DNA from: Christensenella sp. UBA5399
GTDB taxonomy: Bacteria; Bacillota; Clostridia; Christensenellales; Christensenellaceae
Assembly: GCA_002407725.1 (NCBI GenBank)
Contig: DHOD01000130.1
Span: forward strand, 19,917-29,353
Length of the DNA: 9,437 bases
Direction: 5' to 3'
The number at the start of each line of letters is the position of its first letter. Position 1 is the first letter of the stretch. Positions 1 through 5,430 of this stretch are shown piece by piece. The notes under the pieces are model-generated. The model saw only the letters and a list, made by a program, of their open reading frames with translations. It made no database searches and had not been told where the DNA came from. The translations under genes were made by a program, and so were the position numbers.

Positions 1-40
1 TTTTGCGAGGGATTGAAGTGCAGCGTAGTTTGCTGCGACG

Positions 41-86
41 TGGAGCTACTATCGGGATTTGAACCCGAGACCTCGTCCTTACCAAG
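41..86 (-). other. tRNA-Thr(GGT) 3' fragment, integration (att) site
   Basis: Read on the minus strand, this stretch is the 3' part of a tRNA: anticodon loop TTGGTAA (anticodon GGT, Thr), the 3' side of the anticodon stem (GGACG), a 5-base variable loop (AGGTC), a perfect T-arm (TCGGG, TTCAAAT, CCCGA), acceptor strand TAGTAGC, discriminator T and encoded CCA. The 5' side is missing. Bases to the right cannot form the anticodon stem (they give TTTGC where CGTCC is needed), and no D-arm or 5' acceptor follows. It is a known consequence of tyrosine-integrase insertion that the intact tRNA stays at one end and a 3' copy marks the other, with the element on the 5' side of the copy. The element therefore extends rightward from about 86, and 1-40 is host flank. 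The fragment is not expected to be a working tRNA. Confidence 0.85.
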
Positions 87-216
87 CAAAAGACAGGCGC
101 TTTGTCCCGCGCAACAGAAACAGTTTAGTGCAGTAGAAACCCTTATAAACAAAGGCTTTTTTGAGCTCTTGCGCAATTTGTGCTGTTTTTCGCATTAGAC
201 GTCTTTGTAGAATATA

Positions 217-436: not shown

Positions 437-1000
437 TCAACCTATTTGCTCAAAACACATGTCCAGCACAGCATGTTCTAACGCAGCTGTGCTGTCATAT
501 AGCCAGCTATGCATATAATCCTCTGGAATAATTACCGGCATTCGATCATGAATCCAAGCGAATTCTTCGCCAGGACTGCGAGTAAGGATAGCAAATCCAT
601 CATCGTGATAGATACCCGCCATATAAATAACTTTCTTGCCGGGGCGGAAGAATAAATACTGTTCTTTCTTCTTACTCTCAGTTTCGTGGGGCTCATAGTA
701 ACTGGAAGCTGGAATCAGGCAGCGGCTGGTTTTCATAGCATCTTTGAATGTCCACTTTTCGGCGGCGGTTTCACTTCGTGCGTTTATGAGAGGACGGGAA
801 CCCTGCTTCTTACTGGGAAAGCCGAATCGCATAAATTGAGTATGATTGTCACCGATAATAACGGGGGCATAGTTGCTAGGGACAATGAGACCGGGATTGA
901 ATTCAATCTGCTGCCCGTTTTGCCTCGCGCTATCTTCAGCGGCGTTACAGATATCCCGTAGTTCTTGCTCTTCAATTTCTACATAAAATCGTCCGCACAT
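437..1000 (-). CDS. SRAP-domain protein (YedK/HMCES family)
   Basis: This 187-residue protein belongs to the SOS-response-associated peptidase family. These proteins bind abasic sites in single-stranded DNA and form a covalent thiazolidine link through Cys2 after removal of the initiator Met, shielding the lesion. Every signature residue is visible: MCGRF at the N-terminus with Cys2, the NARSET motif at 73-78 (Asn73), the catalytic Glu103 in the YYEP segment, and His151 in IHDRMPVII. It is a little shorter than E. coli YedK. The start at 1000 has a GGAG site (1007-1010) six bases upstream that overlaps the end of the repressor gene. Only 3 bp separate the two genes, so they almost certainly share an mRNA. 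The context with a LexA-like repressor and a translesion polymerase supports a role in damage tolerance on the element or its host. Confidence 0.93.
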   Translation of the reverse strand: MCGRFYVEIEEQELRDICNAAEDSARQNGQQIEFNPGLIVPSNYAPVIIGDNHTQFMRFGFPSKKQGSRPLINARSETAAEKWTFKDAMKTSRCLIPASSYYEPHETESKKKEQYLFFRPGKKVIYMAGIYHDDGFAILTRSPGEEFAWIHDRMPVIIPEDYMHSWLYDSTAALEHAVLDMCFEQIG

Positions 1001-1003
1001 AAT

Positions 1004-1699
1004 TTACTCCGAACCTACAACTTTGCCGTATACGCGCAGGTCCTCTTCCCCGCTGATATGGATAGGTTTGTAATTGCTATTTAATGAAACAAGTCGGCCT
1101 TCGGAAAGTTTTTTACAGAACGCCTCGTTATTGAGCATGAAGATGCCAATTTCGCCATCTTCTAAAGTTTGTTGCTGTTTCACATAAATGATTTGTCCAT
1201 CAATAAACCGAGGAATCATACTGTCGCCGCATACCCGTACAGCGAAGGTCGCATCATGCGGAACATGATCGTCAGCTTCGATTAACTCGTAATTATCGCT
1301 ATCAAGGAACATTCCGGTTCCGGCAGAAACGGGTAGATCATATAAAGGTATGTACCGCTTAGGCATCTCTGCAACTGGATTCCTCAAATAGCGATTGTCT
1401 TTGAGCAGTAGTGCCGCGTATTCACTTACGCGCCGCAAGCCTTCTTCGTTCAGGTTAGGGTAGTATGTACGAGAAAACTGCCCGATTCCCGAGACACCAT
1501 CCACACCACAGCATTCGCAAATCAAAAGGAATTGCACAGCCGATGGATTGGCTCTACCGCATTCCCATGTGCTGATGGTTTTGGAAGTGGCTTTCGCACC
1601 GCGTTGGCACAGATAATCAGCGACATCGTCCTGAGAATACTTTGAATCTGTCCTTATCTTTTTAATATATGCGCCTATTACGGCAGAATTAATATCCAT
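1004..1699 (-). CDS. LexA/CI-type self-cleaving repressor (HTH-XRE + S24 peptidase)
   Basis: This 231-residue protein has an N-terminal helix-turn-helix of the XRE type (about 7-66, containing the SQDDVADYL and SKTISTWE helices) and a C-terminal S24 peptidase fold (about 115-228). The autoproteolysis signature is complete: Ala126-Gly127 cleavage site in LPVSAGTG, Ser160 in GDSM and Lys197 in FCKKL, with the 37-residue Ser-Lys spacing found in LexA. Proteins of this kind repress until RecA filaments on damaged DNA trigger cleavage. An upstream Met at 1798 in the same frame would put 33 unlikely residues over both promoters. I chose 1699 because the homologous part starts there and a well-formed promoter ends six bases before it. 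There is no Shine-Dalgarno site, so the mRNA is predicted to be leaderless. It probably represses the divergent polymerase operon and itself. Confidence 0.9.
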   Translation of the reverse strand: MDINSAVIGAYIKKIRTDSKYSQDDVADYLCQRGAKATSKTISTWECGRANPSAVQFLLICECCGVDGVSGIGQFSRTYYPNLNEEGLRRVSEYAALLLKDNRYLRNPVAEMPKRYIPLYDLPVSAGTGMFLDSDNYELIEADDHVPHDATFAVRVCGDSMIPRFIDGQIIYVKQQQTLEDGEIGIFMLNNEAFCKKLSEGRLVSLNSNYKPIHISGEEDLRVYGKVVGSE

Positions 1700-1705
1700 A
1701 ATATT

Positions 1706-1734
1706 AGTATAATACCTGATTTGGTAAATGGCAA
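1706..1734 (-). promoter_or_regulatory. Promoter of the repressor-SRAP operon (leaderless)
   Basis: On the minus strand there is a -35 box TTGCCA (1729-1734), a 17-base spacer and a -10 box TATACT (1706-1711). The -10 box ends only six bases before the repressor ATG at 1699, so transcription should begin at or within a base or two of the start codon. The -10 box lies in the 9-bp palindrome GTATAATAC (1707-1715), which recurs inside the operator on the polymerase promoter and suggests autoregulation. Confidence 0.7.
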
Positions 1735-1741
1735 TGATAAA

Positions 1742-1758
1742 ATCTAATATAATTAGAT
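1742..1758. promoter_or_regulatory. Candidate operator, 17-bp palindrome between divergent promoters
   Basis: This is a perfect inverted repeat, ATCTAAT and ATTAGAT around ATA, centred at 1750. The half-site ATTAGAT recurs at 1781-1787, beside the operator on the polymerase promoter. It lies upstream of both -35 boxes. Its centre is 42 bp from the centre of the 1784-1800 palindrome and 39 bp from the GTATAATAC core in the repressor promoter, close to whole helical turns. Binding by the adjacent repressor is inferred. Confidence 0.55.
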
Positions 1759-1765
1759 AAATATA

Positions 1766-1794
1766 TTGAAATGCAAAAATATTAGATGTATAAT
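1766..1794 (+). promoter_or_regulatory. Promoter of the polymerase operon
   Basis: A sigma-A-type promoter consists of -35 TTGAAA (1766-1771), a spacer of exactly 17 bases and a perfect -10 box TATAAT (1789-1794). It lies 31 bases upstream of the polymerase ATG. The -10 box is buried in a perfect 17-bp palindrome, so it should be strong when free and fully blocked when the operator is occupied. Confidence 0.8.
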
Positions 1795-1800
1795 ACATCT
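1784..1800. promoter_or_regulatory. Candidate operator on the polymerase -10 box
   Basis: AGATGTATAATACATCT is a perfect 17-bp palindrome centred at 1792, covering the -10 box of the polymerase promoter. Its central GTATAATAC is repeated at 1707-1715 in the repressor promoter. It matches neither the E. coli LexA box (CTG-N10-CAG) nor the Firmicutes box (GAAC-N4-GTTC), so the element's own repressor is the likeliest ligand. Confidence 0.65.
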
Positions 1801-1824
1801 TACCCTCATGGAAAGGAGCACGCT

Positions 1825-3069
1825 ATGGATAGGACGATATTACATGTAGACGGCAACCATTTTTACGCGAATATAGAGAAAGCCAACGATCCATCGTTGA
1901 AAGGAAAGCCTATGGCTGTAGGCGGCGATGTGGAGCAACGCCACGGAATAATCCTGGCGAAGTCCGATGAGGCCAAAGCGTGTGGTGTAAAGACAGGCGA
2001 AGCACTGTGGCAGGCTCGTGAAAAGTGCTGGGATATTATCATAGTTCCTCCAAATTACCCGTTATATATCCGATACAGCCGATTGCTACATAACATTTTT
2101 GAAGAATATAGCGACAAGGTGCAGGCGTTCGGGTTGGATGAATCCTGGGTTGATGTGACAAACTCTATGGATTACCTGAACATGAGCGGTGAAGAAATTG
2201 CCCATCAGATTCGGGAGCGCGCAATCAGCGAGCTTGGTATTACTGTTTCGGTGGGTGTTTCCTGGAATAAGATATTTGCTAAGTTGGGATCAGATTACAA
2301 AAAGCCCAATGCAGTAACCATCTTTACAAAAGAGAATTATATGAACAAGGTTTGGCCGCTCCCTGCCGAGGATTTGCTGGGCGTGGGGCGCGCTACACAA
2401 ATCAAGCTGAATGCCAGAGGGATAAAGACGATAGGCGATCTCGCTAATACATCTCCTGATATGTTACAAAGCTGGCTACACAAATGGGGATTATTTCTTC
2501 ATGTGTTTGCAAATGGGATGGACACGTCGCCAGTCACTCCGACCGGCTTCGAGGAAGCAATCAAAAGCATCGGAAACTCTACGACCACACCCCGTGACCT
2601 TGTTAACGACAGAGATGTAAGGATTACATTTACTGCATTATGCGAATCAGTAGCCACACGATTGCGCGAGCATGGCTTGCTTGGCAAGACAGTGCAGATT
2701 AGCCTGCGCGATAACAAGTTGTTTAGCTTTGAAAGACAAATGACGCTCCAAAAGCCAACATGTATTGCAACGGAATTGTTGGACGCCGCCATGATATTGT
2801 TTAAAAAGCATTATCGGTGGGATAAGCCGCTCAGAAGCATAGAGGTACGGGCAATGAATCTTGTATCAGAACACACAAGCATTCAATTGGACTTATTTGA
2901 TAATGAGGAAAAGCGCATAAGAGAAGAAAAGCTGGAACGAACCGTAGATAACATACGGAAGCGTTTCGGGCACTATGCGATTCTACGCGGTATGCTCTGT
3001 GAGGATAAAGAGCTTGGGCATTTGAATCCCCGTGACGATCATACAATCCACCCGGTGGGATATTTCTGA
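1825..3069 (+). CDS. Y-family translesion DNA polymerase (DinB/UmuC type)
   Basis: This 414-residue enzyme extends DNA past template lesions with low fidelity. The catalytic palm is recognisable from Asp9 in HVDGNHFYANIE and the Asp105-Glu106 pair in GLDESWVD, which together supply the metal ligands. Tyr14 is at the usual steric-gate position that excludes ribonucleotides. A helix-hairpin-helix thumb segment follows (about 194-230, LLGVGRATQIKLNARGIKTI) and then a little-finger region (about 255-350). Near the C-terminus, QLDLF (354-358) fits the pentapeptide that docks polymerases on the beta sliding clamp. I chose ATG 1825 because AAAGGAG (1812-1818) lies six bases upstream and homology starts there. 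An in-frame ATG at 1786 precedes the -10 box. The gene is divergent from the self-cleaving repressor, so it should be induced by DNA damage. Whether it is closer to DinB or UmuC I cannot settle by eye. Confidence 0.93.
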   Translation: MDRTILHVDGNHFYANIEKANDPSLKGKPMAVGGDVEQRHGIILAKSDEAKACGVKTGEALWQAREKCWDIIIVPPNYPLYIRYSRLLHNIFEEYSDKVQAFGLDESWVDVTNSMDYLNMSGEEIAHQIRERAISELGITVSVGVSWNKIFAKLGSDYKKPNAVTIFTKENYMNKVWPLPAEDLLGVGRATQIKLNARGIKTIGDLANTSPDMLQSWLHKWGLFLHVFANGMDTSPVTPTGFEEAIKSIGNSTTTPRDLVNDRDVRITFTALCESVATRLREHGLLGKTVQISLRDNKLFSFERQMTLQKPTCIATELLDAAMILFKKHYRWDKPLRSIEVRAMNLVSEHTSIQLDLFDNEEKRIREEKLERTVDNIRKRFGHYAILRGMLCEDKELGHLNPRDDHTIHPVGYF

Positions 3070-3674: not shown

Positions 3675-3707
3675 GGAATTAAAGTAAATATATCGGAGGA
3701 TATGACA

Positions 3708-4592
3708 ATGGCAAGAACAATAGCAGTATCAAATCACAAGGGCGGCGTGGGAAAAACGGCGACAACCAAGAACATCGGAATTGCATTGGCGCGGCAGGGG
3801 CAAAAGGTTTTGCTGATTGAGTTCGACCCGCAGGGCAATCTCACAGTCGGGCTGGGATACAAAAATCTAGATGAACTTCCTTTCACGATATCGGACGTTA
3901 TCATGAAAATCGTGAACAATGAGCCGTTTGACATTATGCAGGGCATTCTATCGCATGAGGAAGGGATTGACCTGATGCCTGCAAACCACAATCTCTCAGG
4001 CTTTGAAGCTAGCCTTATCAATGAGCTTGGGCGAGAAACCCTGCTTAAACGGTATGTGCAGGCTGTCGGAGATATGTACGATTTCATCTTGATCGACTGC
4101 CAGCCGTCCACCAACATCCTGACCATCAATGCGTTTGTGGCGGCGGACAGCATCCTCATACCCACGCAGGCTGAGGAATACAGCAAGGATGGGATTGAGC
4201 AGATGAAATCCCTGCACCACAAGATAACGGCAAGCGGGATGAATGAGACGCTCAAATTTGAGGGTATCGTGTTTACCATGTGGGACAGGCAGACCAGATA
4301 CGCCAACAGGATCAAGGGCGAAATCATAGAGATGTATGGCGGCTCAATCAACATTTTTGAGCCAGTGATTCCCTTCACCGTGCGGATACGGGAAGCCAAC
4401 GATAAAGGCATCAGCATATTTGCGTATGATGAAAAATCTAAGGCAATAGAGCCATTTGAACTGATTGGAAAGGAGATTATATCGAATGAGAGTAGGCGAC
4501 AAGAAAGTAGAAATCAATTCCGACGTTTGGTTCCAGGCGGCGGAGCAGGAACAAGAGGTAAAAAGCAGGATCGTAAAGCTGTCCATAGATGA
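3708..4592 (+). CDS. parA: ParA-type partition ATPase
   Basis: This 294-residue Walker-type ATPase moves or positions DNA together with ParB. Visible motifs are the deviant Walker A KGGVGKT (11-17, signature Lys11), the A' motif IEFDPQGN (Asp40; the first acidic position is Glu, often Asp in relatives) and Walker B FILIDCQPS (Asp130; Gln replaces the usual first Pro). I start at ATG 3708 because GGAGG (3695-3699) is eight bases upstream. The ATG at 3702 is only two bases from that site. The family-like part ends near residue 261. A basic tail of about 33 residues (rich in Arg, Gln and Gly) follows and is read through the start of parB in another frame, giving a 107-nt overlap. Overlaps of about 4 nt are usual, so the tail may come from a frameshift or lost stop. 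ParA on an ICE probably helps maintenance of the excised circle. Confidence 0.93.
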   Translation: MARTIAVSNHKGGVGKTATTKNIGIALARQGQKVLLIEFDPQGNLTVGLGYKNLDELPFTISDVIMKIVNNEPFDIMQGILSHEEGIDLMPANHNLSGFEASLINELGRETLLKRYVQAVGDMYDFILIDCQPSTNILTINAFVAADSILIPTQAEEYSKDGIEQMKSLHHKITASGMNETLKFEGIVFTMWDRQTRYANRIKGEIIEMYGGSINIFEPVIPFTVRIREANDKGISIFAYDEKSKAIEPFELIGKEIISNESRRQESRNQFRRLVPGGGAGTRGKKQDRKAVHR

Positions 4593-5430
4593 GCTACATC
4601 CGTTCCGCGATCATCCTTTCAAAATTCGTGACGATGATGAGATGAACGCGCTGACCAAGAGTGTGCAGGATATAGGGATAAAGATGCCTATATTGGTGCG
4701 GCCACGCAAGCCGCCTGAAGAAGGGTACGAGATCATATCCGGGCACCGCAGGACACAGGCGGCGATAGACGCGGATATGAACAACATACCGGCGATAGTA
4801 GAGGAATTGGATGATGATACTGCTACAATCCTGATGGCAGATTCCAACCTCACACAGCGGGTGAATATACTGCCAAGCGAGAGGGCGAAAGCCCTAAAAA
4901 TGAAATTGGATGCTATCAAACGGCAAGGCAAGCGTACCGATCTAACTTCCGTCCAACTTGGACGGAAGTTATTTTCTGGAAAAGAATCCAGAGATATTGT
5001 TGCAGAAGAATCGGGGGAAAGCAGAACACAGCTACAAAGATTTATTCGTCTCAATGAACTGATTGATCCGCTGCTGGATTCATTGGATGCCGAGGATATC
5101 AAGTTTACCCCGGCGGTGGAATTATCCCATTTGAAACCGGAGGAACAAAGTGAATTGGCATACATTATGGAAACGGAAGAAGTCGCGCCTACTTTGGCGC
5201 AGGCCAAGACGCTAAAGGAACTCAGCCAGCAGGGTGATTTGGATAAGGGAAAGATTGTGGAGATCCTCACCAGGGAAAAAACTATTGATTACAAGGTTGT
5301 GATGAAGGGTAACGAGCTTAAGGAATATTTTCCGCCTGATACCACGCCAAAGGAAATGAAGGAAACCCTGCTCAAGCTACTCAGGGAGTGGAAACGGGAG
5401 CGTGAACAGGATCATGACCCAATAAGGTGA
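4486..5430 (+). CDS. parB: ParB-type partition protein
   Basis: This 314-residue DNA-binding protein should load on a centromere-like parS site and stimulate ParA. The N-terminal ParB/Spo0J domain is clear (about 28-125), with HPFRDHPF at 38-45 and the nucleotide-binding motif ISGHRR at 84-89. A helix-turn-helix region (about 155-190, with RDIVAEESGESRTQLQRF) follows, and the C-terminus is helical and charged. ATG 4486 has GGAG (4472-4475) ten bases upstream, and its TGA-overlapping context (ATGA) looks like a former stop/start junction with parA. An in-frame ATG at 4465 lacks a ribosome site. A long perfect palindrome lies inside the gene at 4943-4971, covering residues 153-162. ParA and ParB must be translated from one mRNA. 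Confidence 0.93.
   Translation: MRVGDKKVEINSDVWFQAAEQEQEVKSRIVKLSIDELHPFRDHPFKIRDDDEMNALTKSVQDIGIKMPILVRPRKPPEEGYEIISGHRRTQAAIDADMNNIPAIVEELDDDTATILMADSNLTQRVNILPSERAKALKMKLDAIKRQGKRTDLTSVQLGRKLFSGKESRDIVAEESGESRTQLQRFIRLNELIDPLLDSLDAEDIKFTPAVELSHLKPEEQSELAYIMETEEVAPTLAQAKTLKELSQQGDLDKGKIVEILTREKTIDYKVVMKGNELKEYFPPDTTPKEMKETLLKLLREWKREREQDHDPIR
4943..4971. promoter_or_regulatory. Candidate parS: 29-bp perfect palindrome inside parB
   Basis: Arms TAACTTCCGTCCAA and TTGGACGGAAGTTA flank a single C at 4957, 14 perfect pairs. It encodes ParB residues 153-162 (around TSVQLGRK) yet keeps full symmetry. Partition sites are palindromes that can lie within parB, as in B. subtilis spo0J. The sequence itself does not match the B. 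subtilis parS consensus. Four T follow the right arm, so a transcription-pausing hairpin is an alternative. No second copy is visible in this window. Confidence 0.5.

What the first reader, a model, noticed from the sequence alone, without database searches (positions are those of the whole stretch)
4943..4971. 29-bp perfect palindrome inside parB, candidate parS
Fourteen consecutive complementary pairs around one base are extremely unlikely by chance and are kept despite coding constraint on ParB residues 153-162. A partition site nested in its own parB gene is known in B. subtilis, but this sequence differs from that consensus, so it may define a new ParB/parS specificity.
Basis: partly seen in the sequence, partly recalled or inferred. 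Interest (0 to 1): 0.7.

Follow-up and report, generated by a model that had tools for sequence, protein, structure and literature searches.

The report
ParB gene carrying its own address
Inside a bacterial DNA-partition gene lies a perfect 29-base mirror-symmetric site which, across the gene's relatives, changes in step with the DNA-reading helix of the same protein, so the gene likely carries its own docking site as one swappable cassette that would let related genetic elements keep separate addresses.

Summary
The palindrome is real: 14 of 14 pairs around C4957, one copy in its genome up to 3 mismatches. It is not peculiar to this gene. In 132 of 146 distinct family genes a symmetric site (at least 9 of 13 pairs) lies in the same loop; mean best symmetry over the 146 is 11.3 of 13, against 6.8 with shuffled codons. 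Its inner bases vary but stay paired, and follow residues of the recognition helix about 25 codons downstream: Arg/Lys181 goes with G at half-site position 5 in 40 of 40 (0 of 75 otherwise), Asp181 with G at position 4 in 27 of 27 (0 of 96). Eighteen pairs of genes with flanks at least 90% identical differ in this loop-plus-helix cassette. Of 14 genes without the in-loop site, 8 hold a same-format palindrome elsewhere, in 7 outside the gene's frame, all with the G predicted by their Arg/Lys181. Best reading: the site is the parS-type target of its own protein, and reader and target are exchanged together. Nested parS sites are known; I found no report of a swappable, readable cassette (ten literature searches). 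Binding is untested.

The parts
4943..4971 (.). 29-bp odd palindrome, predicted parS-type site; half-site A-A-C-T-T-[C-C-G-T-C]-C-A-A around centre C4957
   Evidence: exact inverted repeat; symmetric site at the same loop in 132 of 146 family genes
4486..5430 (+). parB (314 aa from the ATG; an open frame from TTG 4465 exists)
3702..4592 (+). parA, overlapping the start of parB
   Evidence: Pfam AAA_31 E 5.4e-49, KGGVGKT motif
4924..5055 (+). specificity cassette, codons 147-190 (site + helix-turn-helix), the part that differs between otherwise alike genes
   Evidence: identity profiles
4939..4980 (+). codons 152-165, low-confidence loop that encodes the palindrome
   Evidence: AlphaFold2 pLDDT below 50 for residues 152-165
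4987..5013 (+). helix 168-176 of the helix-turn-helix; residue 169 covaries with half-site position 7
5023..5058 (+). recognition helix 180-191; residues 180, 181, 184 covary with half-site positions 4-7

Best explanation
[quoted passage not shown] Shown here by sequence: the symmetry, its place in a low-confidence loop just before the helix-turn-helix, its conservation through compensated changes, the match between helix residues and site bases, and the cassette pattern. Inferred: that ParB binds the site, loads there as a CTP clamp and recruits the adjacent ParA for partition; and that exchange of the cassette lets an element change its partition specificity in one step, because the new reader arrives with its own target.
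For: (1) Place and symmetry: 132 of 146 distinct family genes have at least 9/13 pairs at a codon-phase-0 centre in the loop, 119 have at least 11/13; codon-shuffled versions reach 9 in 5.1% and 11 in 0.16% of 14,600 draws. (2) Compensated change: at positions 4-8, 97-109 of 113 distinct sites pair with four pair types each, against shuffle maxima of 54-70. (3) Code: R/K181-G5 40/40 vs 0/75; D181-G4 27/27 vs 0/96; N181-CC 23/23. On a tree of the flanks alone, 19 of 19 and 16 of 16 independent pairs agree. Nearest neighbour by helix predicts positions 4 and 5 with 0.87 and 0.84; by flank 0.40 and 0.35; majority class 0.53 and 0.52. (4) Outside the palindrome-coding loop the strongest covarying residues are 181, 180, 169, 184. 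By the alignment with Spo0J, 180 and 169 correspond to Caulobacter ParB R173 and Q162, which contact parS (PMC7383237, passages). (5) Cassette: 18 gene pairs with flank DNA identity of at least 90% and different sites drop to 0.48-0.76 in residues 140-189. (6) Held-out test free of linkage: of 14 genes without the in-loop site, 8 hold same-format palindromes elsewhere (10 sites), all with G5 as their R/K181 predicts; 7 genes have one outside the parB frame, 14-20 nt after the stop in three and 1.1-2.5 kb away in four; 9 sites met the strict format against 0.05 expected by block shuffling.
Against: No binding data. Adjacent ParA was found in 81 of 135 genes that could be checked (75 of 121 with the site), so many relatives may not be partition proteins. 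The canonical ParA-binding motif LG-R/K-GL (as given in PMC12704722) is not seen in the window ParB sequence. Some sites keep a conserved mismatch (the TnCG class), three Paenibacillus genes are at 9-10 of 13, and 6 of 14 genes without the loop site show no such palindrome nearby. The window's own site type is rare: no exact copy in 2.9 million viral contigs, and its residue T181 belongs to the least strict class of the code (T181: TC 4, AC 4, CC 3).
Confidence: 0.88

Rival explanations
1. The palindrome is an operator for gene control only: ParB binds it to dampen transcription of its own operon or to regulate other genes, without a role in partition.
For: ParA was not found beside 54 of 135 checkable relatives; orphan ParB-like proteins on mobile elements exist and ICE protein BisD regulates genes (PMC12704722, passages). 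A bound dimer in mid-gene could block RNA polymerase.
Against: In the window parA overlaps parB. The site lies about 450 bp inside the gene, far from a promoter. Binding by its own ParB would still hold, so this differs only in the output.
Confidence: 0.25
2. It works as an RNA hairpin in the parB messenger, affecting translation or decay.
For: The window RNA folds into a 13-pair hairpin, -31.6 kcal/mol, z -5.55.
Against: Across 113 distinct sites mismatches are A.C 54, G.T 25, other 63, so G-U pairs are not favoured. The innermost pair, which a hairpin cannot form, pairs in 102 of 113 against a shuffle maximum of 101, a small margin. An RNA hairpin does not explain the match to helix residues, nor same-format sites in DNA outside the gene.
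Confidence: 0.04
3. Site and helix agree only because they are neighbours and are inherited together; the palindrome is a recombination hot spot or a mobile palindromic insert and is not bound by ParB.
For: Site and helix lie within about 130 nt and differ as a block.
Against: The same residue goes with the same base in many different cassettes (R181 occurs with several half-sites, all G5), the covarying residues include homologues of parS-contacting ones, and sites at a distance from the helix obey the rule.
Confidence: 0.05

Closest known systems
ParT-parS of Streptomyces plasmid SCP2 (PMC12260392, passages read)
   Same: the parS, an 18-bp inverted repeat, lies inside the coding sequence of its own ParB-like gene; binding shown there by ChIP-seq and BLI
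   Different: one site of one plasmid; in the passages I saw nothing on a swappable loop-plus-helix cassette, many specificities or a site-helix code
ParB-parS and Noc-NBS specificity switch (PMC7383237, passages read)
   Same: HTH residues set which half-site is read; R173 and Q162 (equivalents of 180 and 169 here) contact parS
BstA and its aba element (PMC8585504, passages read)
   Same: a cognate DNA element in the locus of the protein that it belongs to; variants have separate cognate elements
   Different: aba overlaps the start of bstA, has direct repeats, and confers self-immunity in phage defence
RepB/parS of Rhizobium repABC plasmids (PMC4492784, passages read)
   Same: a parS lies within the repB coding sequence of one plasmid
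   Different: other protein family; further parS sites outside the gene
SGI1 parS mimicry of IncC plasmids (PMC10954446, abstract read)
   Same: an element without the ParB carries the ParB's sites, like the site arrays noticed here
   Different: two copies of one specificity; here up to four different specificities in a row, function untested

Membership tests
ParB (ParABS partition) | ParB_N / CTPase-fold domain | tested here: met
ParB (ParABS partition) | central helix-turn-helix DNA-binding domain | tested here: met
   model helices 168-176 and 180-191, aligned to the Spo0J HTH
ParB (ParABS partition) | adjacent ParA ATPase | tested here: met
   window 3702-4592, AAA_31; in relatives 81 of 135
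ParB (ParABS partition) | ParA-binding motif LG-R/K-GL in the N-terminal region of canonical ParB | tested here: not met
   not seen on reading the window protein; motif as given in PMC12704722. So it is not filed as a canonical ParB, only as ParB-like
ParB (ParABS partition) | CTP binding and clamp closure | not testable with these tools
   G-H-R-R 86-89 near-matches the known motif (recalled), no assay
canonical chromosomal parS | sequence TGTTTCACGTGAAACA | tested here: not met
   the window site differs; two exact canonical sites lie elsewhere in the same genome, C32 and C159
parS nested in its own ParB-like gene (as SCP2 ParT) | inverted repeat inside the coding sequence | tested here: met
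parS nested in its own ParB-like gene (as SCP2 ParT) | specific binding by the encoded protein | not testable with these tools
   only covariation evidence

The most novel reading that the evidence does not exclude
Probability: 0.45. Interest if true: 0.93.

Novelty: new variant of a known kind. Interest (0 to 1): 0.86.

Why it matters
If binding is confirmed, this is a natural library of many ParB-parS pairs in which each protein comes with its target written in the same gene. That makes the protein-DNA recognition code of the ParB family, and the question how a binding protein and its site change together without a non-functional step, directly testable on natural pairs. It would also explain how several related elements can share a cell, and give orthogonal DNA-labelling pairs.

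Tried and rejected
RNA hairpin: strong fold for the window but no G-U excess and no account of the helix code. Chance or codon constraint: rejected by codon shuffles. Phylogeny: flank tree and flank nearest neighbours do not predict the site. A distance (Mantel) test gave only a modest partial correlation of site with helix, 0.24, though 0 of 999 permutations reached it. Further copies in the own genome: none up to 3 mismatches. Exact window site in viral contigs: none. Rfam: no match in the window. tRNA: none by ARAGORN. My regex anchors missed 38 of 211 ORFs and left 40 of 149 genes outside a strict position rule (109 inside); many of those 40 have the site in the same loop, so searches used an alignment instead. 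For one search I kept 146 of 149 genes (HMM score over 220) after thinning 176 distinct genes to 149. Pattern searches: 6 of 398 genomes of the phylum sample have an exact format match; the backward pattern matched in 1 genome, twice; with 1 mismatch 45 of 291 genomes of the class sample match, several hits being plainly unrelated, and the backward control also matched in some 20 genomes. A conjugative or integrated nature of the window's element was not shown: pilin, thioester, ester-bond and sortase domains were found, no relaxase or integrase, among the 18 window and contig proteins scanned. Literature: ten searches of an open-access library; the claim that the cassette is unreported rests on these alone.

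Full report
OBSERVATION. The palindrome at 4943-4971 is exact, 14 pairs around C4957; the next loopless palindrome in the window has arms of 8. It lies in the 314-codon parB (ATG 4486), covers codons 153-162, and is the only copy in the 161-contig assembly up to three mismatches. The same genome holds two exact canonical parS sites elsewhere, so this ParB, if it binds here, reads something else than the chromosomal ParB does.

SAME PLACE IN RELATIVES. In one search, 211 family ORFs gave 173 loop segments (38 missed by my anchors), 143 of them distinct. After thinning (176 distinct genes, 149 representatives, 146 with HMM score over 220), 132 of 146 have a palindrome of at least 9/13 pairs centred on the first base of a codon in the loop between the helix KMKLDAIK and the helix-turn-helix; 119 have at least 11/13. 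The residue before the centre is Gln in 113 of 132 and Pro in 12. With codons redrawn from the family's usage the mean best symmetry is 6.8 against 11.3 observed; 5.1% of 14,600 redraws reach 9 and 0.16% reach 11. The 14 genes without the site also have an unlike loop.

WHAT VARIES. The common form is AACTT-nnnnn-CAA-[G/C/A/T]-TTG-n'n'n'n'n'-AAGTT. Position 12 is A and position 3 is C in nearly all; positions 4-8 use all four bases and remain paired in 97-109 of 113 distinct sites, while shuffling of partners gives at most 54-70. Even the inner CAA changes with compensation (CCAnTGG, AAAnTTT, ACAnTGT). Mismatches are A.C 54, G.T 25, other 63, with no excess of RNA-type G-U pairs. A second class of loops (QAGRP type) has other outer bases but is equally symmetric.

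A CODE WITH THE HELIX. Site bases were compared with all protein columns. Outside the palindrome-coding loop the top four columns are residues 181, 180, 169 and 184, all in the helix-turn-helix. R or K at 181 goes with G at half-site position 5 in 40 of 40 cases, other residues in 0 of 75; D181 with G at position 4 in 27 of 27, others 0 of 96; N181 with CC in 23 of 23; D169 with G at position 7 in 29 of 29, others 16 of 99. Cells without a clear pair were left out of these counts. On a tree built from the flanks only, independent pairs agree 19 of 19 and 16 of 16, and about 14 of 16 for D169. The helix predicts the site, the flanks do not. In the alignment to Spo0J, residues 180 and 169 match Caulobacter R173 and Q162, contacts in the ParB-parS crystal (PMC7383237, passages); this numbering step is mine.

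A SWAPPED CASSETTE. Among 27 gene pairs with flank DNA identity of 90% or more, 18 differ in at least two half-site bases; their mean identity is 0.48-0.76 in residues 140-189 and 0.86-0.95 elsewhere. The protein relatives P0003 and P0004 agree in 91/94 and 115/118 residues on the two sides and 16/41 between; the window and P0002 in 89/94, 109/118 and 22/43. DNA for these five-or-so closest relatives was not available, so their sites were not seen.

A TEST FREE OF LINKAGE. Site and helix are neighbours, so they could agree by common descent. The 14 genes without the in-loop site were not used for the code. Eight of them hold same-format palindromes: seven have one outside the parB frame (14-20 nt after the stop in L169, L186, L099; 1.1-2.5 kb away in L184, L192, L198, L199), L186 has a second one inside its N-terminal extension, and L200 has one in its loop in another phase. 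All ten sites have G5 and all eight proteins have R or K at 181. With the family's base rate for G5 (40 of 115) that is about 2e-4 by my arithmetic. Helices of the same type go with the same half-site: SARQ with GTGC, SVKQ with CGGGC, NYK with CTGGA. Nine strict-format sites were found where block shuffling gives 0.05. Six genes (L170, L181, L172, L182, L183, L097) gave none by this filter.

STRUCTURE AND CONTEXT. AlphaFold2 (mean pLDDT 80, 60 sequences) gives pLDDT below 50 for residues 152-165, the palindrome-coding loop, and confident helices on both sides: a stretch of protein that can afford to be dictated by DNA. The model matches Noc, ParB and KorB. parA overlaps parB. A ParA homologue lies upstream in 81 of 135 relatives that could be checked, so part of the family may serve other ends. 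Downstream are pilin-like, thioester, ester-bond and sortase proteins; that the segment is a conjugative element is my inference.

HOW IT WOULD WORK. Likely a ParB dimer binds the palindrome, one helix per half-site, loads as a CTP clamp (established for ParB) and with ParA partitions the DNA molecule; being inside parB, the centromere can never be separated from its reader, and exchange of the cassette changes both at once. Binding, loading and partition are inferred.

COMPARISON. A parS inside its ParB-like gene is known in SCP2 (PMC12260392) and in a Rhizobium repB (PMC4492784); BstA has a cognate element in its own locus (PMC8585504). None of the passages I saw describes interchangeable reader-plus-site cassettes. 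The most novel extension rests on arrays of several different sites next to TnpV and serine recombinase genes.

Noticed in passing
Two array sites equal, over 23 bases, sites inside parB genes of other genomes (L235, L229); in the script the first was compared in a symmetric form whose 23-base core is that of the fetched copy.
   Followed up: partly
   Followed up: no
P0005: 474-aa protein with two successive ParB cassettes of different type (GTKL..SRNQ and AAKF..SGDT); fusion or assembly error.
   Followed up: no
loci L040, L069, L070 (upstream of parB) and L071: Relatives without ParA sit beside genes that look like a DnaC-type loader or a MobC-type protein (by eye).
   Followed up: no
window 40-115: Minus-strand stretch resembling the 3' half of a tRNA at the edge of the element, possible attachment site; ARAGORN finds no whole tRNA.
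   Followed up: no
window 437-3069: SRAP, S24/LexA-like and Y-family polymerase genes next to parAB, an SOS-like set.
   Followed up: no
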